In this document: positions 36,245 through 53,708 of the stretch, piece after piece
Position numbering within the stretch: position 1 is the first letter of the stretch
How the letters are laid out: every line of letters starts with the position of its first letter
Assembly (NCBI RefSeq): GCF_030158815.1
Contig: NZ_BPFZ01000004.1
Location: 1-64,000 of the forward strand
DNA from: Candidatus Phycosocius spiralis
GTDB taxonomy: Bacteria > Pseudomonadota > Alphaproteobacteria > Caulobacterales > Aquidulcibacteraceae
Direction: 5' to 3'
Length of the DNA stretch: 64,000 nucleotides
Notes under the pieces: model-generated
The model's input: the letters and a program-made list of their open reading frames with translations, nothing else
What the model was told of the DNA's origin: nothing
Databases searched by the model: none
Position numbers and translations under genes: made by a program

Positions 36245-38065
36245 CTACCCCATAGCGCTGATCGCTTGTGCATTGAGATAGGGTAAAGGCGCATAGGTTG
36301 CACCCATGGCTTTGGCCAGATCTTTGGCTTCTGGCCTCGGAATGGGAGAGGTATCAAGATGGATCGTGGCAATCCCTGAATGCGCTATGGCGCGGGCAGC
36401 TGAAAACGCATGGGCCATCGCAGTCTTGCGCCCCGCCTTCCCATCGCGGTCAATATTAGCGCGCCCATCGGTTAGGAAGAGCAATCGTGGAGTGCGCCCT
36501 TTGGCTTTTTCACTTAAAGCCAAGGTCAAGGCAGTATCCATGCCAGCGGCCAAGGGTGTACCCCCGCCGCCTGCTAAATCGGCCAATTGCCGCCGTGCAC
36601 GGGCGAGCGACCTTGTTGGCGGCAGCAAGATTTGGGCACCCTCATTGCGAAAGGAGACCATCGCCACCCTGTTACGATCGACATAGGCTTGCGCCAACAA
36701 AAGCTCCACCGCCCCTTTGGCCTCAGCAAGGCGTTGAAACGCCGATGAACCCGATGCATCAACGACCAAAATGGTGGTCGCTTCTCTGGGCTGGGCAAAG
36801 CAGCGGATGCGAAAGTCGCTTTTGCGAACCTCAATCCGTTTGGGACCAGCTACTGATCTGGAGGCTTTCATCGTACTTTTGCGGATTTTTTGCCACGGAG
36901 CGGCCGCGCGCAGGGTATCAATCAGGTTAAGGCGCTCACCAGGCTTTAGAGTGCCAGCACGCGATCGGATCGGGCGCCCGCGTAAGGGTGACTTAGTATG
37001 CTGACCTGAACCCGCACCTATGGCCCCTCTCGGCGTGGGGCACTTGGCTTTGGTAGAAAGGGCGGCAATCACTTCGCTGGGCAGCGCCGATTTAACCGCC
37101 TCGATCAATTGCTCACTCAAATCTTGGCCCTCTGGAGGGGGTGTCGTATCGGTTTGCGGGTCGCTTGCTTCGGCTTGATCTGGGTTCGTGGGTTCTGCAG
37201 GCGGATTTTCTTGCTCGCTTTGTATTTCTGGTTCAGCTTGGGGCTGGACCTCATGCGTATCTTGGGGCAGTTGTAAGGCTTGGGGAGCAAGGACAAGACG
37301 TGCCGCCAATGTGATATCCGCCAACCCAGCCATTGAGCGCCCGTCCAATGCTGTTACCGCGCGTGCCACGTTCAAACAGGCCAATGCGGGACGCGCAGAT
37401 TCTAAACCAAATGCAGTCACAGCATCACAGATAGCATCTATTAAAGCGGGGTCCGATAAGGTGATCTGGTTACACTGCACACGCGCCTTTAAGATAAGTT
37501 CCAAACTTGGCCCGTCGTCAGATAAGTCGCTAAACTTCAAGACGTCGGTATCTATGCATAAGCTGCATCGCTCTAACAGGGCAGCAGGCGGGGCCTCTTC
37601 TGGCCCAAAGCTTTCATCGAAGAGGAGGACGCCAAACCGTGCTGGCAAAACCGAGGTGAGACCGTCGCGTTCAAGCTGAAATTGCCCGCTATCTAAGGCG
37701 CTCGTAATGCGCGAAGCCGTTGAAGCTTGCATGCGTTCAGCCATCGGCAAAACCAGCACACCGCCATCGGCCTCACTCAATAAGCCACGCTGAACCACAG
37801 GGCGACCCAGTGCCAGACTGGTTGCCAAATCAAGCCCGCCTAGCAGGCGATCATCGCCAATATGCAAGGGGCACCGGCGTATCGGTGTCGCTTCCGGCAA
37901 AAGATCTGTTAGGATTTCAAGCCAAGCGTCACTCAACGGGCCGTGGCGACCGCGCAGGACTACGCCGCCAAAAATGTGGGGATCGATAGCAAAAATGGCA
38001 GCAATAAGGAGTGCATCGGGCCAAGTTGCGCAGGGTTTACCTTTAGGTGTTGCAACTTGCCTCAT
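36245..38065 (-). CDS. bchD: magnesium chelatase subunit D
   Basis: AAA-like subunit that, with BchI and BchH, inserts Mg2+ into protoporphyrin IX. Length is 606 residues: a degenerate N-terminal AAA+ domain, an acidic Pro/Gln/Glu-rich linker around residues 275-330, and a C-terminal von Willebrand A domain with the MIDAS motif VDASGSS and later FLTDGRANIDRDG. It starts with an ATGA overlap on the bchI stop, so the two are coupled. The 3' end faces trpS across repeat copy 3. Confidence 0.95.
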   Translation of the reverse strand: MRQVATPKGKPCATWPDALLIAAIFAIDPHIFGGVVLRGRHGPLSDAWLEILTDLLPEATPIRRCPLHIGDDRLLGGLDLATSLALGRPVVQRGLLSEADGGVLVLPMAERMQASTASRITSALDSGQFQLERDGLTSVLPARFGVLLFDESFGPEEAPPAALLERCSLCIDTDVLKFSDLSDDGPSLELILKARVQCNQITLSDPALIDAICDAVTAFGLESARPALACLNVARAVTALDGRSMAGLADITLAARLVLAPQALQLPQDTHEVQPQAEPEIQSEQENPPAEPTNPDQAEASDPQTDTTPPPEGQDLSEQLIEAVKSALPSEVIAALSTKAKCPTPRGAIGAGSGQHTKSPLRGRPIRSRAGTLKPGERLNLIDTLRAAAPWQKIRKSTMKASRSVAGPKRIEVRKSDFRIRCFAQPREATTILVVDASGSSAFQRLAEAKGAVELLLAQAYVDRNRVAMVSFRNEGAQILLPPTRSLARARRQLADLAGGGGTPLAAGMDTALTLALSEKAKGRTPRLLFLTDGRANIDRDGKAGRKTAMAHAFSAARAIAHSGIATIHLDTSPIPRPEAKDLAKAMGATYAPLPYLNAQAISAMG

Positions 38066-39090
38066 GCACCAAACAAATCCGCAATCGCCCGCTCAATCCT
38101 TGTTGATGAGCCTGTCTCATCAAGGGGATTGCGCCGTAAGCGATGGCGCAGCGCCATAACCGCAACGCCCCTTAAATGACGTTCTTCGACCTTTGTGCCC
38201 CCTTTAAGGGCAGCAACGGCGCGCGCGGCGCGGATTAAGGTCAATTCACCGCGCAAACCATCAACACCCACAGCCATGCATAGTTTAGACGCCCATTCTA
38301 AAGCCGTATCTGGGGTTTCAATATCCATCAATCTAGCCCGGGCTGCAATGATTTGGTCGCGCACCTTCGCTTCCTCCCTGGCCTGACGTTTTGCAAAGCC
38401 AGCAGCATCGCGGTCAAAAGCATCGCGGCGGCGTACCACTTCGACCCGAAGCGCCAAGGTATCGGGGGTTTTAACATCAACGGAGAGTCCAAACCGATCG
38501 AGTAATTGGGGTCGAAGTTCACCTTCTTCGGGGTTGCCGCTACCGATCAGAACAAAGCGCGCCGGATGGCGTACGCTTAAGCCCTCACGCTCCACCACAT
38601 TTTCACCTGATGCTGCCACATCCAGCAATAAATCAACCAGATGATCTTCCAGTAGATTGATCTCATCGATATAGAGGAAGCCACGGTGGGCGCGCGCGAG
38701 AAGACCTGGCTCAAAATGCTTTTCGCCTTGAGTTAACGCGCGTTCGAGATCGAGTGCGCCAACCACCCTGTCCTCTGTCGCACCCAGCGGGAAATCCACA
38801 ACGGGTGTGGCAATGGTTTCAACTTGGGTGACTTTACCTGCGCCTCGATGCGTACAATCTGTCGCGCAGGCGCTTTTGTCGGCCAGGGGATCGCAATGAT
38901 AAAGGCAGGACTTGACCGCTTCCAAAGGTGGCAAGAGTGCGGCGAGACCACGTACAGCTGTGGATTTCCCTGTGCCGCGATCCCCAAAAACCATAACCCC
39001 GCTAATGCCTGGATCTATTGCAGCGATCAGCATCGCCAACTTCATGTCGTCTTGACCAACGATGGCAGAAAATGGAAAGGCAATGCGCAT
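38062..39090 (-). CDS. bchI: magnesium chelatase ATPase subunit I
   Basis: AAA+ ATPase of Mg-chelatase, 342 residues. Walker A GDRGTGKST is at residues 36-44, Walker B FLYIDEINLL at 138-147, and the family insert with Cys residues (CATDCTHRG) is near 75-83. A GGAG ribosome site lies about 9 nt before the ATG. It is downstream of bciB by 27 bp on the same strand, suggesting a bciB-bchI-bchD operon. Confidence 0.97.
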   Translation of the reverse strand: MRIAFPFSAIVGQDDMKLAMLIAAIDPGISGVMVFGDRGTGKSTAVRGLAALLPPLEAVKSCLYHCDPLADKSACATDCTHRGAGKVTQVETIATPVVDFPLGATEDRVVGALDLERALTQGEKHFEPGLLARAHRGFLYIDEINLLEDHLVDLLLDVAASGENVVEREGLSVRHPARFVLIGSGNPEEGELRPQLLDRFGLSVDVKTPDTLALRVEVVRRRDAFDRDAAGFAKRQAREEAKVRDQIIAARARLMDIETPDTALEWASKLCMAVGVDGLRGELTLIRAARAVAALKGGTKVEERHLRGVAVMALRHRLRRNPLDETGSSTRIERAIADLFGA

Positions 39091-39117
39091 ATAGGGGGCT
39101 CCAGGGGGGATTTGAAC

Positions 39118-40479
39118 TCAAAGCTGGTTAGGCCTGCTTGCCACATCCGCTGTCGGCAAGGAAGCGGGCAGCGCGCTTATGCGCTCATTAACGTCCGGTG
39201 ATAAACCCAAAGGTGCGACCAGTGCCCAGATATAGTTTGGAATCATCGACTTCATGCGCTGGGGTTGTTCGCGTCTTAAATGCACAATCGTCTCTATCGC
39301 TTTCATTTCAACCCGGGTGCGCGCAAATTCTAAGCCACGCGGTCCAATCTTGGGCATCAACCAGCCCACTAAGGGCCGCACCCAATTGGGCATAGCGCGC
39401 ACTGGAAGGCCGCCTGCAGCGCGTTCAACATTGGTCTTAAATCCTTGCACTGCACCGGCGCGCTTGCCTTTACTGAAAGGTTCTTTGAGCACCACTTCCT
39501 CGCCCAAAAGCGACAATAAGTCGCGTCCGCGATCATTACGTACGATCATCCATTGCTCGCCCTGCCCACCCATATAGCCAATCGTAATATCGGCCAAGGC
39601 ATTGGTATAATCGACACAGGTTCGACACGTGAGCGGAAAAAAGTCCCCCGGTAATTTTGAGATCGGCAATTGCAGGAAGGGGATAAGCTTGCTGCGCCCA
39701 TCATCAAAGCGCAACTCGACGTGATAATCGGCGCGAAACTCTAGGTATTTGATGGTATTGGGTTCGTCTGAGAGCAGGCTCAGAAACTGATGGAATTTTT
39801 CTGTCGTCGTATTATCAGAACAGGGCGTCCCGATTACATAAAGCGTATCAAATCCTAATTCTTGCTCTAAAGCCCGCAGCGCATAGACTTGGCAGGGAAT
39901 GCCAATGATCGCGAGGCGTCGATATCCTAGAGCGCGCGCCGGTTCTAATAGGGCTAAAAGGGGCGCATAGCCCATGCGCATCCCTCGGCAATGCGCCATA
40001 TCGGCAGCTTGTGTCACCAAGGTTGGGACCGGGCGCCAACGATCAAATGGGTCTGGCTTCATGGTCAAAACCGCATCGACACGCCCGGTTTCAAGTAAGC
40101 GCTCTGCCAAGCGGGTTGTGAGACCAGTCCATTGGGCACCTTCAAGACCTGTTTTAAGTTTGGCCTGATACATGTCCTGGATTGGGCCAAAAAAAAGCTC
40201 GTCTCCTTTGGCGAGATTGCGCGTGCGGCCGTGGGTTTGGGTTTCTAAGGACCCGTAATTGGGGGCGATGAACTGACAAGCTCGTCCACATCGCTTGGAG
40301 TCCTCAGTCCGCGAAATGCCGCAGTCGGTACATAAGGAACGCGGGGCCGCAGGCTGGGCGCAGGCTTTTGCCAGCATCTCTTGGATCTGCATTTGGTCTT
40401 GCGACCTACCAACCTTGGACCTCATATGTCCGGATATATGCGAATCTCGCGTATCGCTTAAGAATTTATCCATTAGCAT
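39118..40479 (-). CDS. bciB: 3,8-divinyl (proto)chlorophyllide reductase, BciB type
   Basis: Ferredoxin-dependent, FAD/[4Fe-4S] enzyme of the F420-hydrogenase beta-subunit (FrhB) superfamily that reduces the 8-vinyl group. Length is 453 residues. Cluster cysteines are Cys50 and Cys53 (LCTDC) with Cys64 and Cys68 (CGRAC). GIPCQVYALRALEQELGF and LTCRTCVDYTNALADITIGYMG are family-typical. FrhB-fold proteins have several functions, but linkage to bchI/bchD makes BciB by far the best call. Two in-frame ATGs (40479, 40473) exist; GGGA stands before the first. Confidence 0.88.
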   Translation of the reverse strand: MLMDKFLSDTRDSHISGHMRSKVGRSQDQMQIQEMLAKACAQPAAPRSLCTDCGISRTEDSKRCGRACQFIAPNYGSLETQTHGRTRNLAKGDELFFGPIQDMYQAKLKTGLEGAQWTGLTTRLAERLLETGRVDAVLTMKPDPFDRWRPVPTLVTQAADMAHCRGMRMGYAPLLALLEPARALGYRRLAIIGIPCQVYALRALEQELGFDTLYVIGTPCSDNTTTEKFHQFLSLLSDEPNTIKYLEFRADYHVELRFDDGRSKLIPFLQLPISKLPGDFFPLTCRTCVDYTNALADITIGYMGGQGEQWMIVRNDRGRDLLSLLGEEVVLKEPFSKGKRAGAVQGFKTNVERAAGGLPVRAMPNWVRPLVGWLMPKIGPRGLEFARTRVEMKAIETIVHLRREQPQRMKSMIPNYIWALVAPLGLSPDVNERISALPASLPTADVASRPNQL

Positions 40480-40527
40480 GACTGTCCCACTCTGGTTTTA
40501 AATTGCAAGAGCAATTGCCCATCTGAC

Positions 40528-40561
40528 TGTCAAAATATTTGGACGTCTATTTCTATTGACA
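40528..40561. promoter_or_regulatory. tandem PpsR/CrtJ-type boxes
   Basis: TGTC-N10-GACG (40528-40545) and CGTC-N10-GACA (40544-40561) share two bases, giving the symmetric arrangement TGTC-N10-GACGTC-N10-GACA. The consensus for the photosynthesis repressor PpsR/CrtJ is TGT-N12-ACA (TGTC-N10-GACA), so each box has one mismatch. The right box ends on TTGACA, a perfect -35, so binding would block the promoter. Confidence 0.6.
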
Positions 40562-40583
40562 AGAGAGTATTGAGAGGCATACC
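40556..40583 (+). promoter_or_regulatory. candidate promoter of the bchN operon
   Basis: TTGACA (40556-40561) followed after 16 bp by CATACC (40578-40583), a weak -10 with three of six consensus bases. The -35 overlaps the right PpsR-like box. The transcript would start about 40 bp before the 79-codon open frame. Confidence 0.4.
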
Positions 40584-40630
40584 TTGGCATTCGACCTGAT
40601 AATGGGTTCGGCTTATGCTGGAGAATTCCG

Positions 40631-42153
<1,523 letters not shown>

Positions 42154-42157
42154 TGCG

Positions 42158-43744
42158 ATGCAATTGACTGTCTGGACTTATGAAGGACCACCCCATGTCG
42201 GGGCCATGCGGATTGCTACTGCGATGAAGGGCGTTCACTTTGTATTGCACGCCCCTCAAGGCGATACTTATGCCGACCTGTTATTCACGATGATTGAGCG
42301 GCGCGGCGAACGTCCGCCCGTCACTTTTACGACATTCCAAGCCCGGGATTTGGGCACAGATACGGCAGAGATCTTCAAGACCGCTGCCTCTGACGCTTTT
42401 GCACGCTTTGCCCCTGAAGTGATGTTGGTTGGGGCCTCTTGCACGGCTGAGCTGATCCAAGATGATCCAGGCGGTTTGGCGCGCGCGCTTAATCTGCCGG
42501 TCCCGATCATTGCGCTGGAATTGCCTTCTTATCAGAAGAAGGAAAACTGGGGTGCTTCAGAAACCTTCTATCAATTGGTGCGTACGCTGGCGACAGCGCC
42601 AGCACAGCCAAAGGCCAAAGCCGCCAGCCCAAGCTGCAATATTTTAGGGGCTACGGCTTTGGGGTTCCGGCACCGCGATGATGTGATTGAAATCACAAAG
42701 CTTCTCGACCAATTGGGAATTGATGTGAATGTCGCGGCCCCCATGGGTGCCACGGTAGAGGATATCCGCCGCCTGCCTGAGGCTGATTTTAATGTGGTCT
42801 TATACCCTGAGATTGCCGATAGCGCGGCGCGTTGGCTTGAAAAGCAATATGGCCAAAAAGCTGTGCACACCATTCCTATGGGTTTTCAAGCCACGTGCGA
42901 TTTTATCGAAGAAGTGGCCGCATTAGCTGGCGTGGACCCCACGTCTGTTTTAACCCAACATGGCTCGCGCATGCCTTGGTGGGCGCGCTCGGTTGATTCT
43001 AATTATCTGACCGGAAAGCGGGTTTTTGTGTTTGGTGATGCCTCCCATGCAATCGCCGCAGCGCGAGTTGCCAAGGAAGAGATGGGCTTTGAGGTTGTGG
43101 GCCTTGGCTGTTACAACCGCGAATTCGCCCGTGAAATGCGCGCAGCAGCTGCCAATTATGGGCTCGAAGCCTTAATCACGGATGATTATCTTATGGTAGA
43201 ACAAACCATAGCGACGCTGCAGCCCGAACTTGTTTTGGGAACCCAAATGGAACGCCATATCGCTAAACGCCTTGGCGTGCCATGTGCTGTGATCTCTGCC
43301 CCCGTCCATGTTCAAGATTTTCCAGCGCGCTATGCCCCTGTCATGGGCTTTGAAGGGGCCAATGTGTTGTTTGATACCTGGGTCCACCCCCTGGTAATGG
43401 GTTTGGAGGAGCATCTGTTGACGATGTTCCGCGATGATTTTGAATTCAATGATGCGGCGGGTCCGTCCCATTTGGGCAGCAAAGGCCACGCCCCATCGGC
43501 CCAAACCCGTCAGAGCGAGTCCGAAACTCTGATCAGCGTTGCACCAGCTATGGCCGCCCAAGAGCCAAGCGACACCCTAAGCGGTTTGATCTGGTCGCCT
43601 GAGGCCAGCAAGGAATTGTCCAAAATACCCTTTTTTGTGCGCGGTAAAGCTAAGCGCAATACCGAACGTTACGCATCGGAGCAGGGACTAGAAATCATTA
43701 GTATCGAGGCTCTTTATGATGCCAAAAGCCACTTCGCACGATAA
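42158..43744 (+). CDS. bchB: light-independent protochlorophyllide reductase subunit B
   Basis: Second NB-component subunit, 528 residues. Asp36 (QGDTYAD), the unusual fourth ligand of the NB cluster, is present. The C-terminal PCP-reductase domain reads [25 protein letters not shown]. It starts 4 bp after bchN. Its end is close to bchH, whose upstream in-frame codons overlap it. Confidence 0.96.
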
Positions 43745-43757
43745 GGAAAGCCTCCAT

Positions 43758-48450
<4,693 letters not shown>

Positions 48451-48463
48451 GGAGGGTGAGCGT

Positions 48464-49165
48464 ATGTTTTCCACCACCTATGTTGAGAGACGTCAGCGTC
48501 TTGAGACTTATTTTGACAAAACCGCTTCTGATACCTGGGCGCAACTGACTTCAACCGCGCCGGTTAGTCGCATTCGGGCCACGGTTCGCGCAGGGCGCGA
48601 CCAAATGCGTGAGATTTTAGTGTCTTGGTTGCCGCAAAATCTGCAAGCCAAACGCGTCATGGACGCCGGTTGTGGAACGGGTGCTTTAGCCGTTCTTGCC
48701 GCGCACCGGGGTGCTGAAGTTGTGGCGGTTGATGTGGCCGCTAGCCTTGTTGGCGTCGCAGGTGAGCGGGCACCTGTTGACCCTGCGCCTGGCACTATTG
48801 ATTTTCGGGTCGGCGATATGCTTGCCAATGAGTATGGCCAGTTTGACCATGTGGTTTGTATGGATTCCCTGATCCATTATCCCCGCGCGGAGATTGTCAC
48901 AGCGCTTGCGGCCTTGGCCAGGCGGACTAAGCAATCCATCGTCTTCACTTTTGCACCTAAAACACCGCTCCTAACCTTGATGCACACAATTGGGCTTTTG
49001 TTTCCCCGCTCGGATCGCGCGCCCGCGATTGAGCCTGTCAGTGAAACATTTTTGCGCCGCGCGCTGGGATCGGATCCGCGTCTAGCTGGCTGGAAGATTG
49101 GCCGAAGTGCGCGTGTGGTTAGCGGATTTTATACCTCCCAAGCCATGGAGCTTGTTGCCCAATGA
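48464..49165 (+). CDS. bchM: Mg-protoporphyrin IX O-methyltransferase
   Basis: SAM-dependent methylation of the C13 propionate of Mg-protoporphyrin IX. Length is 233 residues. The SAM site is VMDAGCGTGALAVLAA near residue 65. The N-terminal YFDKTASDTWAQLTS and the FTFAPKTPLL segment are typical. ATG 48464 has GGAGG 8 nt upstream; the longer open frame into bchL is unlikely. The stop overlaps the next gene by 4 bp. Confidence 0.95.
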   Translation: MFSTTYVERRQRLETYFDKTASDTWAQLTSTAPVSRIRATVRAGRDQMREILVSWLPQNLQAKRVMDAGCGTGALAVLAAHRGAEVVAVDVAASLVGVAGERAPVDPAPGTIDFRVGDMLANEYGQFDHVVCMDSLIHYPRAEIVTALAALARRTKQSIVFTFAPKTPLLTLMHTIGLLFPRSDRAPAIEPVSETFLRRALGSDPRLAGWKIGRSARVVSGFYTSQAMELVAQ

Positions 49166-49512
49166 CGGACATGCACCTGCATCATTTGCATCCCGATTTT
49201 TGGATGCCCGCATGGCCTGAATTGTTGAAGCGCCGGTGCCATGTGACAACTTGCACTATCGACATTGAGCATAGTGAAGATAGCTTGCATGCCCATGTTA
49301 GTCTTGATGATGGATCTATTCTGGGCCCAGGCGACAAAATGTTGGTACAAGGTCCGCCCATTCGTCTTAGTTTTGGCGAAAAATGCACCATTTCAAGGCC
49401 CGTATCAATCGAGCGTGCTTTCCCGCTAGAACGACTTTGGATCCAATTGACCTCATACTTTGAACTCAGTGAACTTTATGACGTCAGCTTCACCTCAGGG
49501 AGACTGCCATGA
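49162..49512 (+). CDS. unrecognised 116-residue protein between bchM and acsF
   Basis: A soluble protein rich in His and Trp at the N-terminus ([14 protein letters not shown]), with a beta-rich middle ([17 protein letters not shown]) and a C-terminal [20 protein letters not shown] recognise no domain. It is locked by 4-bp overlaps (ATGA) to bchM and acsF, so it is translated with them. In purple bacteria lhaA and puhA/B/C often lie in this interval; this product looks like none of them. A role in the cyclase step is only inference from coupling. Confidence 0.75.
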
Positions 49513-50573
49513 ACGCTACAACCTTCACCACCGACTATCTTGACACCACCAGTCTCGCCAACACTGACACATTGTTGAGCCCGCGTTTCTATACGACAGA
49601 TTATGCTGAGATGGACAAAATTGATATTAGTTCTGTGCGCGCTGAATGGGACCAGATGCTCAGTGCGATGGCAGCCGATCCCCGCCGTGGCCATTTTAAG
49701 CGCGATGGTTCGTTCGATAATCGTTTAGAAGATCTGGACCCAGAATTACGACGCGAATTTGTCGATTTTTTGGTCAGCTCGATCACGTCAGAATTTTCAG
49801 GTTGTGTGCTTTATGCGGAGATAGTTAAGCGAGTCACCAATCCCGACATCAAGGCCTTGTTTAAGTATATGGCGCGCGATGAATCTCGCCATGCCGGCTT
49901 TATCAATGAAACACTTAAAGATTTCGGTATTGGGGTTGATCTTGGATTTTTAACTAAGACCAAAAAATATACATTCTTTAAGCCGAAATTTATCTTCTAT
50001 GCAGTCTATCTATCAGAAAAAATTGGCTATGCCCGTTACATTACGATCTTTCGGCAGCTGGAGCGTCATCCTGAGCATAAATTTCACCCAATATTCAATT
50101 GGTTCAAGGAATGGTGCAATGATGAGTTTAGCCATGGAGAGGCATTTGCCTTGATTTTGCGCTCCAACCCGCACTTGCTGGAAGGGGCTAATAAATGGTG
50201 GATCCGCTTCTTCATCCTATCGGTATATGCCACAATGTATGTGCGCGATCATGCCCGCCCAGCTTTTCACAAGGCCCTAGGTGTGAACCCTACCGATTAT
50301 GATTATCAGGTTTTTGCGCTCACGACTGAAATCTCAAAACAAGTATTTCCAGTCACACTCGACACCGATAATCCCAAGTTGCGCGCAGGGTTTGAACGGC
50401 TTCGCATGCTCTCCAACGCAATGGACGATGCAAAGGCTGCAGGTGGGTGGATAAATAAGTTCAGAAGAATAAGTTTAGGGCTGCAGATTGGGGCAACTTT
50501 TCTTAGTCTTTATCTGCTACCAACCCAGTCGAATACTTTGCCCAGCACAGTGCGGCTGCAACCAATTTGGTAA
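49509..50573 (+). CDS. acsF: aerobic Mg-protoporphyrin IX monomethyl ester oxidative cyclase
   Basis: Membrane-associated di-iron oxygenase forming the fifth (E) ring to give protochlorophyllide, using O2. Length is 354 residues. The di-iron ligands are seen as E95 (SSITSEFSG), E125xxH128 (RDESRHAG) and E206xxH209 (NDEFSHGEA). It starts with an ATGA overlap on the 116-residue gene. No anaerobic BchE is present in the window, so ring closure appears oxygen-dependent. Confidence 0.96.
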
Positions 50574-50647
50574 GTAGCTTGTTATTAGGATATCAAACGG
50601 TCAATTGGGCTACTCAGGGCCAAAAGGCTGGAGAAAAGGACAATACC

Positions 50648-51868
50648 ATGGACTACCAAGCCTATTTTAAAAGCCAGCTAGACGCCCTTAAACAAGAAGG
50701 CCGGTACCGGGTGTTTGCTGATTTAGAGCGCCATGCCGGGCACTTCCCCCGTGCCTCTCGCCATAATGATGGTGGCGTTCAAGAAGTGACGGTTTGGTGT
50801 TCTAATGATTATTTGGGTATGGGTCAAAATCCAAAGGTTTTGGCAGCGATGCACGAAGCAATCAACCGTTGCGGTGCTGGTGCTGGTGGAACACGTAATA
50901 TATCAGGTACCAATCATTATCATGTCTTGCTTGAGCAAGAGCTTGCTGATCTACATGCTAAAGAAGCCGCTTTGTTGTTTACGTCAGGATATGTCTCCAA
51001 TTGGGCGGCGCTGAGTACTTTAGCCAGCAAAATCCCAAATTGTATTGTTGTCTCTGATGAAGGCAATCATGCTTCAATGATTGAAGGTATCCGCCATAGC
51101 CGTGCCGAGGTCCGCATTTTCAAACACAATGATCCCGTTGATCTTGAGCGAATTTTGTCAGAGCTGCCCTTGGATCAGCCTAAATTGGTGGCATTTGAAT
51201 CTGTCTATTCGATGGATGGCGACATCGCTCCGATCGCGGCCATTTGTGATATTGCCGACAGATATGGCGCGATGACTTATCTTGATGAAGTACACGGCGT
51301 TGGCCTTTATGGCCCGCGTGGCGGCGGTGTGGCAGAGCGCGAAGGCCTGATGCATCGCTTAACCGTCATTGAAGGCACATTGGGTAAGGCTTTTGGTGTT
51401 TTTGGAGGCTATGTTGCGGCTTCAACCGCTTTATGTGACTTTATCCGCAGCTTTGCTTCGGGCTTTATTTTTACCACCGCCTTACCCCCCGCGGTTGCGG
51501 CGGGTGCTTGCGCCAGCATTCGGCATTTGAAGGCAAGCTCTCAAGAGCGGGAACGTCATCAAGACCGCGTGGCCCAGACGCGCCGCCGCCTAGAGGCCGC
51601 CGGTATTCCTTGTATGGCAAACGATAGCCACATCATCCCCGTGATGGTTGGAGATCCGGTTAAATGCAAAATGATCAGTGATTGGCTGCTTGAGCGATCG
51701 GGCATTTACATTCAGCCGATCAATTACCCAACTGTTCCACGAGGTACAGAGAGATTGCGTATTACGCCATCGCCCTTGCACACCAATGCCGATATTGAAC
51801 ACTTGGTCACCGCATTGTCAGATCTTTGGCAACAATGCGCTTTGGCCCGGATTTCAGCCGCAGCCTAG
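50648..51868 (+). CDS. hemA: 5-aminolevulinate synthase
   Basis: PLP enzyme condensing glycine and succinyl-CoA to ALA, the first tetrapyrrole precursor (Shemin pathway of alphaproteobacteria). Length is 406 residues. The PLP lysine is Lys247 in EGTLGKAFG, and [15 protein letters not shown] is the cofactor strand. AAGGA lies 7 nt before ATG 50648; an upstream in-frame start overlaps acsF. It is the last gene of the pigment operon and would raise ALA supply in step with Mg-branch enzymes. Confidence 0.95.
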
Positions 51869-52076: not shown

Positions 52077-53708
52077 CTAATTCCCCCGCCCAAATATGCA
52101 GCACGCCCATGGACCCAATTGATCGCCTTCGACATCGCCAAAAGCAGCGAGTAAGCGTCTGCCTTCTAGAAGATTGTGATCAAGGTCACACAAATGATAT
52201 GGCTGTGAGCCAAAATTAATGCTTACAAGGCCATACTCGCCGCGCTTAAACACGAACACATCGGGATGTTCAGGAGCGATATCTTCATACGCCCCAAAAA
52301 TCCAGGTAGCGGGGTCAGCTTCGCGCAGCTTTAGCGCGAACCGATAAAACGACCAGACAGAATTGGGGTCAGCCATTTGGGTCGCAAGGTCGACCCCACC
52401 TTTGTTTAGGGTTGGTTTAAGCCATGGTGTGCCAGTCGTAAAGCCACCAAGTGGCGTCCAGGGATAAGGTGTTCGCGCATGGTCACGCGTCATTGCGGCG
52501 GCTTTGGCTAGGGCTTGGGCTTCAGTGCCACCCACCTCAAGCTCCAATCGATAAGTGGTTTTCGCCCACACATCGTTTAGATCTTCAAAGCTGGTGATGA
52601 TAGTATCGCCCAGCCCAAGCTCATCGCCCTGGTAAATAAAAGGGGTAGCGCGCTGCAAAAGATAGGCCGCCGCCAGAGCTTTCGCCACTTGACCATCATT
52701 TACGTTTTGATCACCAAAACGGGAAATTAGTCTGCGAAGATCATGATTACCCAGCACACAAGTGTTCCAGCCACGGGGTCCTATAGCTTGATCCCAACGC
52801 GAAAACACAGATTTAAACCAAACTCGGTCCCATGGTTGATTGGCGCGCTGAGGTGGATCAACAAAATCAAAGTGGTAGATCATATCGAGCATTGGATCTG
52901 CAGGATCAACCAATTGGGCAGCACGCACCGGATTAAGTCCGGGCCCTTCACCAATCGCGACACAATCGTAATGATCAAAAACTTCCCTGCGCATCTCGCG
53001 TAGCCACGGATGCAGGTTCGGTCCAATTGCCAAAGCCTTATAGAGTGGCCCCGGACTTGGGTCAGCGACATCAGGCAAGCCAGCGGGCTTTGAAATAACG
53101 GTCACAACATCCAAGCGAAAACCTGAAACACCTTTGGTGAGCCAAAACCTCATCGCTTCATAAATGTGCTGACGTACGGTTGGATTATCCCAATTAAGAT
53201 CAGCTTGAGTTTTGTCAAACAAATGCAGATAATAGGCGCCGTCTGGAACCTGGGACCAAGCAGGGCCACCAAAAATCGAGTGCCAATTGTTGGGCTTTTC
53301 GCGCCAATGGTAAAAATCGCGATAGGGGCTCGTGGGGTCGCGGGCGGCAGCCACAAACCAAGGATGCTCTATGGAGGTATGGTTGAGCGCAATGTCTAAA
53401 ACTATCTTCAAATCGAGCAGAGCGGCCTGCGCCAAGAGGGCCTCAAAATCTGCCATTGTGCCAAAGCGGGGATCAATCCGGCAATAATCGGCCATATCAT
53501 AACCATTATCGGCCATGGGGGAGAAGAAAATAGGAGATAACCAGACAATTCCCGCGCCTAACGCTTTAAGCGCGGTGAGGCCTTGAGTGATGCCCACTAA
53601 ATCACCAACACCATCCCCATTGGTATCGAGAAAGGATCGAGGATAGATTTGATAGACGGGGCGGCGCTTCCACCAATCACGGTCAATAGGTGTGGCTTTA
53701 GCGTCCAT
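52077..53708 (-). CDS. GH13 alpha-glucosidase (oligo-1,6-glucosidase-like)
   Basis: Glycoside hydrolase family 13 enzyme of 543 residues. The N-terminal WWKRRPVYQIYPRSFLDTNGDGVGDL is typical of the oligo-1,6-glucosidase/alpha-glucosidase group. The nucleophile is Asp200 (GFRLDVV), the acid/base Glu254 (AIGEG), and His322/Asp323 lie in GNHDLRR. No signal peptide, so cytosolic. The ATG follows the smr stop directly, so it may be translated with the mltA-smr genes. The exact substrate is not decidable. Confidence 0.9.
   Translation of the reverse strand: MDAKATPIDRDWWKRRPVYQIYPRSFLDTNGDGVGDLVGITQGLTALKALGAGIVWLSPIFFSPMADNGYDMADYCRIDPRFGTMADFEALLAQAALLDLKIVLDIALNHTSIEHPWFVAAARDPTSPYRDFYHWREKPNNWHSIFGGPAWSQVPDGAYYLHLFDKTQADLNWDNPTVRQHIYEAMRFWLTKGVSGFRLDVVTVISKPAGLPDVADPSPGPLYKALAIGPNLHPWLREMRREVFDHYDCVAIGEGPGLNPVRAAQLVDPADPMLDMIYHFDFVDPPQRANQPWDRVWFKSVFSRWDQAIGPRGWNTCVLGNHDLRRLISRFGDQNVNDGQVAKALAAAYLLQRATPFIYQGDELGLGDTIITSFEDLNDVWAKTTYRLELEVGGTEAQALAKAAAMTRDHARTPYPWTPLGGFTTGTPWLKPTLNKGGVDLATQMADPNSVWSFYRFALKLREADPATWIFGAYEDIAPEHPDVFVFKRGEYGLVSINFGSQPYHLCDLDHNLLEGRRLLAAFGDVEGDQLGPWACCIFGRGN

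What the first reader, a model, noticed from the sequence alone, without database searches (positions are those of the whole stretch)
36245..51868. Pigment gene set that stops exactly at chlorophyllide a
The cluster encodes ALA synthase (hemA), all Mg-chelatase subunits (bchH, bchI, bchD), BchM, AcsF, a BciB-type vinyl reductase and BchN/B/L. That is every step from protoporphyrin IX to monovinyl chlorophyllide a, plus ALA supply. Absent are bchF, bchC and bchX/Y/Z, bchG/P, crt, puf and puh genes. In many purple bacteria the order is bchFNBHLM-lhaA-puhABC-(acsF)-puhE-hemA. Here the frame bchNBHLM-acsF-hemA is kept, while bchF, lhaA and the puh genes are missing from it, and ordinary genes (trpS, GH13) flank the cluster. 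Either the photosynthesis cluster is split, or this organism has an unusual or reduced pigment pathway.
Basis: partly seen in the sequence, partly recalled or inferred. Interest (0 to 1): 0.75.

Follow-up and report, generated by a model that had tools for sequence, protein, structure and literature searches.

The report
Split but complete bacteriochlorophyll gene cluster
The window holds one of three pieces of an ordinary, complete set of genes for bacteriochlorophyll-based photosynthesis; the "missing" genes sit elsewhere in the same genome, so the pathway does not stop at chlorophyllide a.

Summary
The gene content at 36245-51868 is as described: hemA, bchHID, bchM, acsF, a BciB-like reductase and bchNBL, plus an overlooked 116-aa gene that fits BciE. 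But the finder's own refuter is met. The same genome (2.50 Mb, completeness 100%) carries bchP, bchG, ppsR, bchF, lhaA, puhABC and puhE 23.4 kb downstream on this contig, and bchO, crt, bchCXYZ, pufBALM and dxs on another. It is a complete BChl a cluster in three pieces. The genome matches the published 'Ca. Phycosocius spiralis', for which a complete gene set, a split cluster and BChl a absorption are in print. Of some remaining interest: the usual bchFNBHLM-lhaA-puhABC-bciE-acsF-puhE-hemA run was parted into two order-preserving halves. All 9 genus genomes searched show it, and one sister-genus genome shows one half; nearby outgroups keep the usual order. The sharp right-hand edge was seen only here: in three relatives the block runs on, with one gene detected between, into bchO-crt-bchCXYZ-puf.

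The parts
36245..38065 (-). bchD, Mg-chelatase subunit D
   Evidence: NF009943 664 bits, cut-off 571
38062..39090 (-). bchI, Mg-chelatase ATPase subunit I
   Evidence: TIGR02030 493 bits, cut-off 467
39118..40479 (-). bciB-like, probable 8-vinyl reductase
   Evidence: Pfam FrhB_FdhB_N and FrhB_FdhB_C; beside bchN in 9 of 9 genomes of the genus and beside bchI in the 5 of these laid out; found in 11 of 22 bchF-bearing genomes searched
40873..42153 (+). bchN, DPOR subunit N
   Evidence: TIGR01279 506 bits, cut-off 420
42158..43744 (+). bchB, DPOR subunit B
   Evidence: TIGR01278 626 bits, cut-off 490
43716..47501 (+). bchH, Mg-chelatase subunit H
   Evidence: NF009942 2067 bits, cut-off 1166
47518..48450 (+). 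bchL, DPOR iron-sulfur ATP-binding protein
   Evidence: TIGR01281 444 bits, cut-off 345
48428..49165 (+). bchM, Mg-protoporphyrin IX methyltransferase
   Evidence: TIGR02021 257 bits, cut-off 159
   Evidence: Overlaps bchM and acsF by 4 bp; homologues on 9 bchB-bearing plasmids, 36-46% identical; in Thalassococcus pS3A the homologue lies between puhC and acsF; a paper gives the order puhBC-bciE-acsF; no Pfam match; no BciE reference sequence was compared
49509..50573 (+). acsF, oxygen-dependent Mg-protoporphyrin monomethyl ester cyclase
   Evidence: TIGR02029 495 bits, cut-off 192.5
50567..51868 (+). hemA, 5-aminolevulinate synthase
   Evidence: TIGR01821 677 bits, cut-off 339
52077..53708 (-). 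GH13 alpha-amylase, right-hand flank, not part of the system; marks a breakpoint seen in this genome only
   Evidence: PF00128 374 bits; its best match in UKL13-1 (70% identical) lies at 3.263 Mb, about 96 kb from that genome's hemA

Best explanation
The block is one of three pieces of a complete alphaproteobacterial photosynthesis gene cluster in an aerobic anoxygenic phototroph. It makes chlorophyllide a: hemA supplies ALA; BchHID inserts Mg into protoporphyrin IX; BchM methylates; AcsF, probably with BciE, closes ring E using oxygen; the BciB-like protein probably reduces the 8-vinyl group; BchNBL reduces protochlorophyllide. The product is then handled by genes elsewhere in the genome: BchF, BchXYZ and BchC to bacteriochlorophyllide a, BchG and BchP to BChl a, then loading into PufBALM/PuhA with LhaA, PuhB, PuhC and PuhE. 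Gene identities and places are shown; enzyme activities are inferred from the families. The piece arose when bchNBHLM, bciE-acsF and hemA became separated from bchF, lhaA-puhABC and puhE, most simply on the stem of this genus and its sister lineage (inferred from trees). In this genome a later chromosomal break detached the crt-bchCXYZ-puf piece, so the block now appears to stop at chlorophyllide a.
For: Own genome: pufL and pufM, puhA, bchY; bchC, bchX, bchY over cut-off, crtB, crtC, crtE, crtF by best match below cut-offs; a bchZ-position nitrogenase-like subunit and dxs; bchF, lhaA, puhA, puhE; crtI-family, bchO, bchG, bchP, ppsR, bchF, puhB, puhC over cut-off; pufB and pufA ORFs. Split in the genus: bchF is followed by lhaA, bchN is flanked by bciB, and bchM is followed by bciE-acsF-hemA in 9 of 9 genomes, including UKL13-1, a single contig of 3,501,508 bases, so this is not an assembly gap. 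In G004, G005 and G006, the three relatives where I laid out the join on one contig, hemA is followed, with only a DUF3422 gene detected between, by bchO-crtI-...-bchCXYZ-puf-dxs. Among 80 bchB loci, bchN has bchF as neighbour in 69, bciB in 2 (an Aquidulcibacter MAG and UKL13-1), no query gene in the fetched stretch in 8, and bchN was not seen in 1. Trees of block 1 and block 2 both give the genus the same sister, L008 (support 0.993 and 1.0; 39 of 85 taxa had all genes), which argues against separate origins of the blocks. Published for 'Ca. P. spiralis': complete BChl a gene set, cluster split into at least two subclusters 20-40 kb apart, absorption peaks assigned to BChl a and spirilloxanthin (section read).
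Against: No expression or enzyme data here. The identity of the genome with 'Ca. P. spiralis' is inferred from size (2.50 Mb), contig number (48 held, 46 published), completeness 100% and contamination near 0, not from a name or 16S. The hemA/GH13 join and the place of the third block rest on one draft assembly. The same paper says that gene organisation is highly conserved in the clade, whereas I find block 3 on another contig, well inside both contigs, in this genome only. Deeper branching differs between the block-1 and block-2 trees (one block-1 node has support 0.114). No consensus PpsR palindrome was found between bciB and bchN in this genome, though one lies there in G004 and G006; three outgroups have none before bchF, so this says little either way.
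Confidence: 0.95

Rival explanations
1. Reduced or unusual pigment pathway: the organism makes chlorophyllide a or a chlorophyll-like pigment only.
For: Within 36245-51868 alone no gene acts after chlorophyllide a.
Against: bchF, bchC, bchX, bchY, a bchZ-position gene, bchG, bchP, puf, puh and crt genes are all in the same genome; BChl a absorption is published for the matching species.
Confidence: 0.01
2. On the origin of the split: the run bchF...hemA was duplicated in inverted orientation to the far (bchO) end of the cluster, and the two copies then lost complementary genes. One keeps bchNBHLM-bciE-acsF-hemA, the other bchF-lhaA-puhABC-puhE.
For: Both blocks keep the ancestral order and one orientation each, although the two gene sets are interleaved in outgroups. 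In G004, G005 and G006 idi and dxs still face each other as they do side by side in outgroup G017, so blocks 2 and 3 look to have stayed in place and block 1 is the moved piece. Both blocks have the same sister lineage. Moving three pieces (NBHLM, bciE-acsF, hemA) one by one would need them to land side by side in the right order.
Against: No second copy of any cluster gene in the stretches laid out; bchF and acsF have one match each in all 9 genus genomes. Junctions carry no visible relic: bchM/bciE overlap by 4 bp in 5 of 5, puhC/puhE are 43-46 bp apart in 5 of 5, bchF/lhaA overlap by 22 bp in 3 of 5 (in G005 the lhaA match starts later; in G004 the measure failed at a stop).
Confidence: 0.5
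3. On the origin of the split: stepwise transposition of bchNBHLM, bciE-acsF and hemA to the bchO end, or regathering after chromosomal inversions.
For: hemA already sits at different places in family members (beside puf in G024 and G030); lhaA-puhABC is also not found between bchM and acsF in L080 and L082, so such moves happen elsewhere.
Against: Needs several moves that each preserve order and orientation.
Confidence: 0.4
4. One block was acquired horizontally from another phototroph and replaced resident genes.
For: Movement of photosynthesis clusters between lineages is discussed for this order.
Against: Block 1 and block 2 trees give the same sister, and block 2 and block 3 trees both place G021 as sister of the genus.
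Confidence: 0.05

Closest known systems
Photosynthesis gene cluster of the 'Candidatus Phycosocius' (CaP) clade, ISME Commun 2023, PMC10008586 (section 12 read, passages elsewhere)
   Same: Complete BChl a, crt, puf and puh gene set; cluster divided into at least two subclusters 20-40 kb apart; no crtA; acsF present. The genome here matches its 'Ca. P. spiralis' assembly in size and quality.
   Different: The section read does not discuss that bchF is parted from bchNBHLM, nor the order-preserving separation, nor bciE. Figure 3A, which draws the organisation, could not be seen.
Canonical AAP photosynthesis gene cluster, PLoS One 2011, PMC3176799 (passages seen)
   Same: Same kinds of genes; crtF-bchCXYZ kept intact.
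   Different: bchFNBHLM-LhaA-puhABC, said there to be found in all ten clusters analysed, is broken here into two order-preserving halves.
Split clusters of Rhodovulum sulfidophilum W4 (PMC3738892, start of abstract in listing) and Blastomonas sp. AAP53 (PMC3622956, start of abstract in listing)
   Same: A photosynthesis cluster in more than one segment.
   Different: Their breakpoints were not compared here.

Membership tests
Complete BChl a photosynthesis gene cluster (type-II reaction centre) | pufL and pufM reaction-centre genes | tested here: met
   PF00124 346.6 and 315.8 bits on C3
Complete BChl a photosynthesis gene cluster (type-II reaction centre) | puhA | tested here: met
   PF03967 132.6 bits, cut-off 27, C4:83987
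Complete BChl a photosynthesis gene cluster (type-II reaction centre) | bchF, bchC, bchXYZ (chlorophyllide a to bacteriochlorophyllide a) | tested here: met
   bchF; bchC, bchX, bchY. bchZ: Pfam Oxidored_nitro, a PCP_red stretch below its cut-off, and position after bchY; no NCBIfam test of bchZ was run
Complete BChl a photosynthesis gene cluster (type-II reaction centre) | bchG and bchP | tested here: met
   TIGR01476 351.6 bits and TIGR02023 503 bits, both over cut-off
Complete BChl a photosynthesis gene cluster (type-II reaction centre) | All genes in one cluster | tested here: not met
   Three blocks on two contigs; 23.4 kb between hemA and bchP
Complete BChl a photosynthesis gene cluster (type-II reaction centre) | BChl a in cells | not testable with these tools
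   Published absorption for the matching species
BciE-dependent (alphaproteobacterial) AcsF cyclase | bciE gene beside acsF | tested here: inconclusive
   116-aa ORF homologous to the small gene before acsF in other clusters; bciE is placed there by PMC10576062 (one passage). No BciE reference sequence or model was compared
BciB 8-vinyl reductase | FrhB/FdhB domains and activity on divinyl substrates | tested here: inconclusive
   Domains met; no NCBIfam cut-off passed; activity not testable

The most novel reading that the evidence does not exclude
The separation has turned chlorophyllide a synthesis into a detachable module, and in the sister genus (G021) the module is really gone. G021 has part of bchG, ppsR, ppaA, bchF, lhaA, puhABC and puhE in the derived order, and bchC, bchX, part of bchY and crt genes, but no match to bchN or acsF. 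Such a phototroph would have to take chlorophyllide from algal or cyanobacterial neighbours.
Probability: 0.04. Interest if true: 0.8.

Novelty: already known. Interest (0 to 1): 0.2.

Why it matters
It closes a lead that looked like a truncated pigment pathway: the organism is an ordinary aerobic anoxygenic phototroph with a scattered gene set. The residue of value is evolutionary. The bchFNBHLM-lhaA-puhABC run, reported as conserved in many phototrophs, can be pulled apart into two order-preserving halves without losing phototrophy, in a lineage that lives with freshwater algae. The sister lineage G021 gives a cheap test of whether the detached half can also be lost.

Tried and rejected
BchF extension: the open frame around BchF is 252-312 aa in this genus against 164-261 in the 13 other genomes. 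I suspected a fused N-terminal domain; in G004 the upstream part is closed off by a stop, and the ranges overlap, so the extension is most likely an artefact of start choice. Rejected.

PpsR control: TGT-N12-ACA sites were counted in ten stretches. The total is below a base-composition expectation in 7 and above it in 3 (G005, G024, G008 C47). Sites recur between ppsR and bchG and between crtC and crtE in 5 of 5 genus genomes. Between bciB and bchN there is one in G004 and G006, none in this genome. G024, G030 and G042 have none before bchF. No conclusion on loss of control.

Empty site for block 3: a left-flank gene (DUF2189) and a right-flank gene (SAICAR synthetase) map to 1.41 and 2.60 Mb in UKL13-1, so no simple insertion site was found; the region has been shuffled.

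Operon relics at the junctions: none seen by gap length and overlap. Second copies of cluster genes: none in the stretches laid out.

Failed or partial: the script failed and was rerun changed. In one search IQ-TREE did not run (thread number); the trees are FastTree trees with its local support values. Before I dropped L007, L015 and L031 as the same genomes as G006, G030 and G024; 39 of the 85 remaining taxa had all genes and were used, 46 were dropped. In one search, 65 taxa (at least 5 of 7 genes) entered the block-2 tree and 12 (at least 4 of 9) the block-3 tree, of 89 offered; in the block-2 tree the place of G017 has support of only 0.683. G021: bchN, acsF and bciB were searched over its whole assembly (0 matches); bchH, bchI, bchD, bchL, bchM, hemA, bciE, pufL and pufM were sought only on the two contigs fetched (28.8 of about 2,600 kb).
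Full report
What is there. The window interval 36245-51868 holds bchD, bchI and a BciB-like gene on the minus strand and, divergently, bchN, bchB, bchH, bchL, bchM, acsF and hemA on the plus strand. Nine of these ten proteins pass at least one curated NCBIfam cut-off; the BciB-like protein has the FrhB/FdhB domains but passes none. An eleventh gene was missed: a 116-aa ORF at 49162-49512 that overlaps bchM and acsF by four bases each. It has homologues on nine bchB-bearing plasmids at 36-46% identity. In Thalassococcus pS3A the match falls on a hypothetical gene between puhC and acsF, and in outgroup genomes G024, G030 and G042 it also lies between puhC and acsF. A 2023 paper (PMC10576062, one passage seen) gives the order puhBC-bciE-acsF, so this is most likely bciE, the auxiliary cyclase subunit of alphaproteobacteria (class described in PMC7319587, passages seen). 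No BciE sequence was compared.

The refuter is met. The window is positions 1-64000 of contig C4 of a 2,502,038-base genome in 48 contigs, completeness 100 and contamination 0.01. Block 2 starts 23.4 kb after hemA, just outside the window: bchP, bch2, bchG, ppsR and ppaA on the minus strand, then bchF, lhaA, puhA, puhB, puhC, puhE and an idi-like gene on the plus strand, C4:75.3-87.6 kb. Evidence: puhA; bchF, lhaA, puhA, puhE (DUF3623); bchP, bchG, ppsR, bchF, puhB, puhC over cut-off and the idi-like protein below its cut-offs. The names bch2 and ppaA rest on position and, for ppaA, a B12-binding domain. Block 3 is at C3:116.1-137.9 kb: bchO, crtI, crtD, a P450, an ATP-grasp gene, crtB, crtC, crtE, crtF, bchC, bchX, bchY, bchZ, pufB, pufA, pufL, pufM and dxs. 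The crtB, crtC, crtE and crtF names rest on best matches below the curated cut-offs, on order, and on the same order in relatives; crtD rests on an amine-oxidase-type domain and position.

Who it is. The nearest bchB loci are an Aquidulcibacter MAG and Hyphomonadaceae bacterium UKL13-1 (85% and 84% identical). The 'Candidatus Phycosocius' clade, to which UKL13-1 and Aquidulcibacter belong by 16S, is described in PMC10008586 (passages). Its section 12, read whole, gives 'Ca. P. spiralis' 2.5 Mb in 46 contigs with 100% completeness and 0% contamination, the smallest of the clade, and reports a complete BChl a gene set. It also reports a cluster divided into at least two subclusters 20-40 kb apart, lack of crtA, and absorption peaks assigned to BChl a and spirilloxanthin. 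The size, contig number and quality match the genome here; the name is an inference. Nat Commun 2025 (PMC12700997, passages seen) also names Aquidulcibacter among Caulobacterales with phototrophic potential.

How the split looks. In 80 bchB loci from public genomes, bchN was seen in 79. Its neighbour was bchF in 69, bciB in 2 (L006, an Aquidulcibacter MAG, and L007, UKL13-1) and no query gene in the fetched stretch in 8. bchM was seen in 67: followed by lhaA in 63 and by acsF in 4, namely L006, L007 and two Burkholderiales MAG loci, L080 and L082. Of 61 genomes (own plus 60 relatives), 22 have bchF, among them 9 of 9 of the genus. In those 9, bchF is followed by lhaA, bchN is flanked by bciB, and bchM is followed by bciE-acsF-hemA. 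Of the 13 other bchF-bearing genomes, bchF is followed by bchN in 11 and by lhaA in one (G021); in G012 the fetched contig ends after bchF. UKL13-1 is one contig of 3,501,508 bases, so the arrangement is real.

In G004, G005 and G006 the order is block 1, a DUF3422 gene, block 3, a gap of 30.9-39.2 kb, block 2. Up to 1.4 kb between hemA and the DUF3422 gene was not examined for other genes. The idi and dxs genes at the gap edges face each other, as they do side by side in the canonical outgroup G017. So blocks 2 and 3 look to be in their old relation, now pushed apart, and block 1 is the piece that moved, in inverted orientation, to the bchO end. In the present genome block 3 is on a different contig, with both breakpoints well inside their contigs, and hemA is followed by a GH13 gene; none of the three relatives laid out across this join shows that. 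The best match of that GH13 gene in UKL13-1 lies at 3.263 Mb, about 96 kb from that genome's hemA. The sharp stop at chlorophyllide a is thus best read as the sum of an old separation and a recent break.

The two separated sets, bchNBHLM-bciE-acsF-hemA and bchF-lhaA-puhABC-puhE, are interleaved in outgroups yet each keeps its order. Trees of six block-1 and seven block-2 proteins (39 of 85 taxa complete) both put L008, which has the canonical order, as sister of the genus, support 0.993 and 1.0; deeper branching differs between the two trees. G021, of another genus of the family, is sister of the genus in the block-2 and block-3 trees (0.997 and 1.0). It has the same derived block 2, bchG-ppsR-ppaA-bchF-lhaA-puhABC-puhE, on one 8.8-kb contig. 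One event on their shared stem is the simplest reading. I favour duplication followed by complementary loss (about 0.5) over stepwise moves (about 0.4); no relic or second copy decides it.

What is left open. G021 (87% complete, about 290 contigs) has no match to bchN or acsF. It also lacks most of bchY and all of bchZ at a contig edge in what I fetched, so incompleteness is the likely reason, but true loss of the chlorophyllide module is not excluded. bciB was found in 11 of 22 bchF-bearing genomes: all 9 of the genus, G013 and G017.

Verdict. A real and correctly read gene set with an ordinary explanation that is largely in print. Text searches and the papers opened (PMC10008586, PMC12700997, PMC5248499, PMC10576062, PMC3176799, PMC7319587; passages, and one whole section of the first) showed no discussion of the order-preserving separation in what I saw. 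Figure 3A of PMC10008586 probably draws it and could not be seen, and the other papers listed were not opened apart from PMC12700997.

Noticed in passing
L244 and L245 (G021:C177 and first 20,000 bases of C187): A sister-genus MAG carries the same derived bchG-ppsR-ppaA-bchF-lhaA-puhABC-puhE piece and a bchO-crtI-crtD-crtB/crtC/crtEF-bchCXY piece with no bchI or bchD match in that stretch, while bchN and acsF are not found anywhere in its assembly.
   Followed up: partly
L200 and L201 (UKL13-1, about 3143.1-3145.5 kb): UKL13-1 is reported to lack pufB, but a short 50-aa pufB and a divergent pufA are readable there; its pufL and pufM are 88% and 91% identical to this genome's, against 94-98% in three other relatives, while bchX, bchY and bchZ are not lower. 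This suggests a replaced puf operon.
   Followed up: partly
L003:1362-3946 (C3:121.4-123.9 kb): A cytochrome P450 and an ATP-grasp gene sit between crtD and crtB in this genome and in G004, G005 and G006; no match was found in the stretches of G021, G024, G030 and G042. Possibly a carotenoid or pigment modification.
   Followed up: no
L005:9612-10910: A DUF3422 gene lies at or inside the photosynthesis cluster in this genus and in outgroups G024, G030 (partial match at the stretch's edge) and G042.
   Followed up: no
L080 and L082 (Oxalobacteraceae and Polynucleobacter MAGs): bchB is followed by bchL without a bchH match, and bchM by acsF-puhE without lhaA-puhABC matches; an apparently independent rearrangement of the same run.
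   Followed up: no
window 39118-40479: The bciB-like gene is patchy in the family: found in 11 of 22 bchF-bearing genomes, beside bchN in the 9 of this genus, beside bchO in G013, and in G017 on a contig with no other cluster match.
   Followed up: partly
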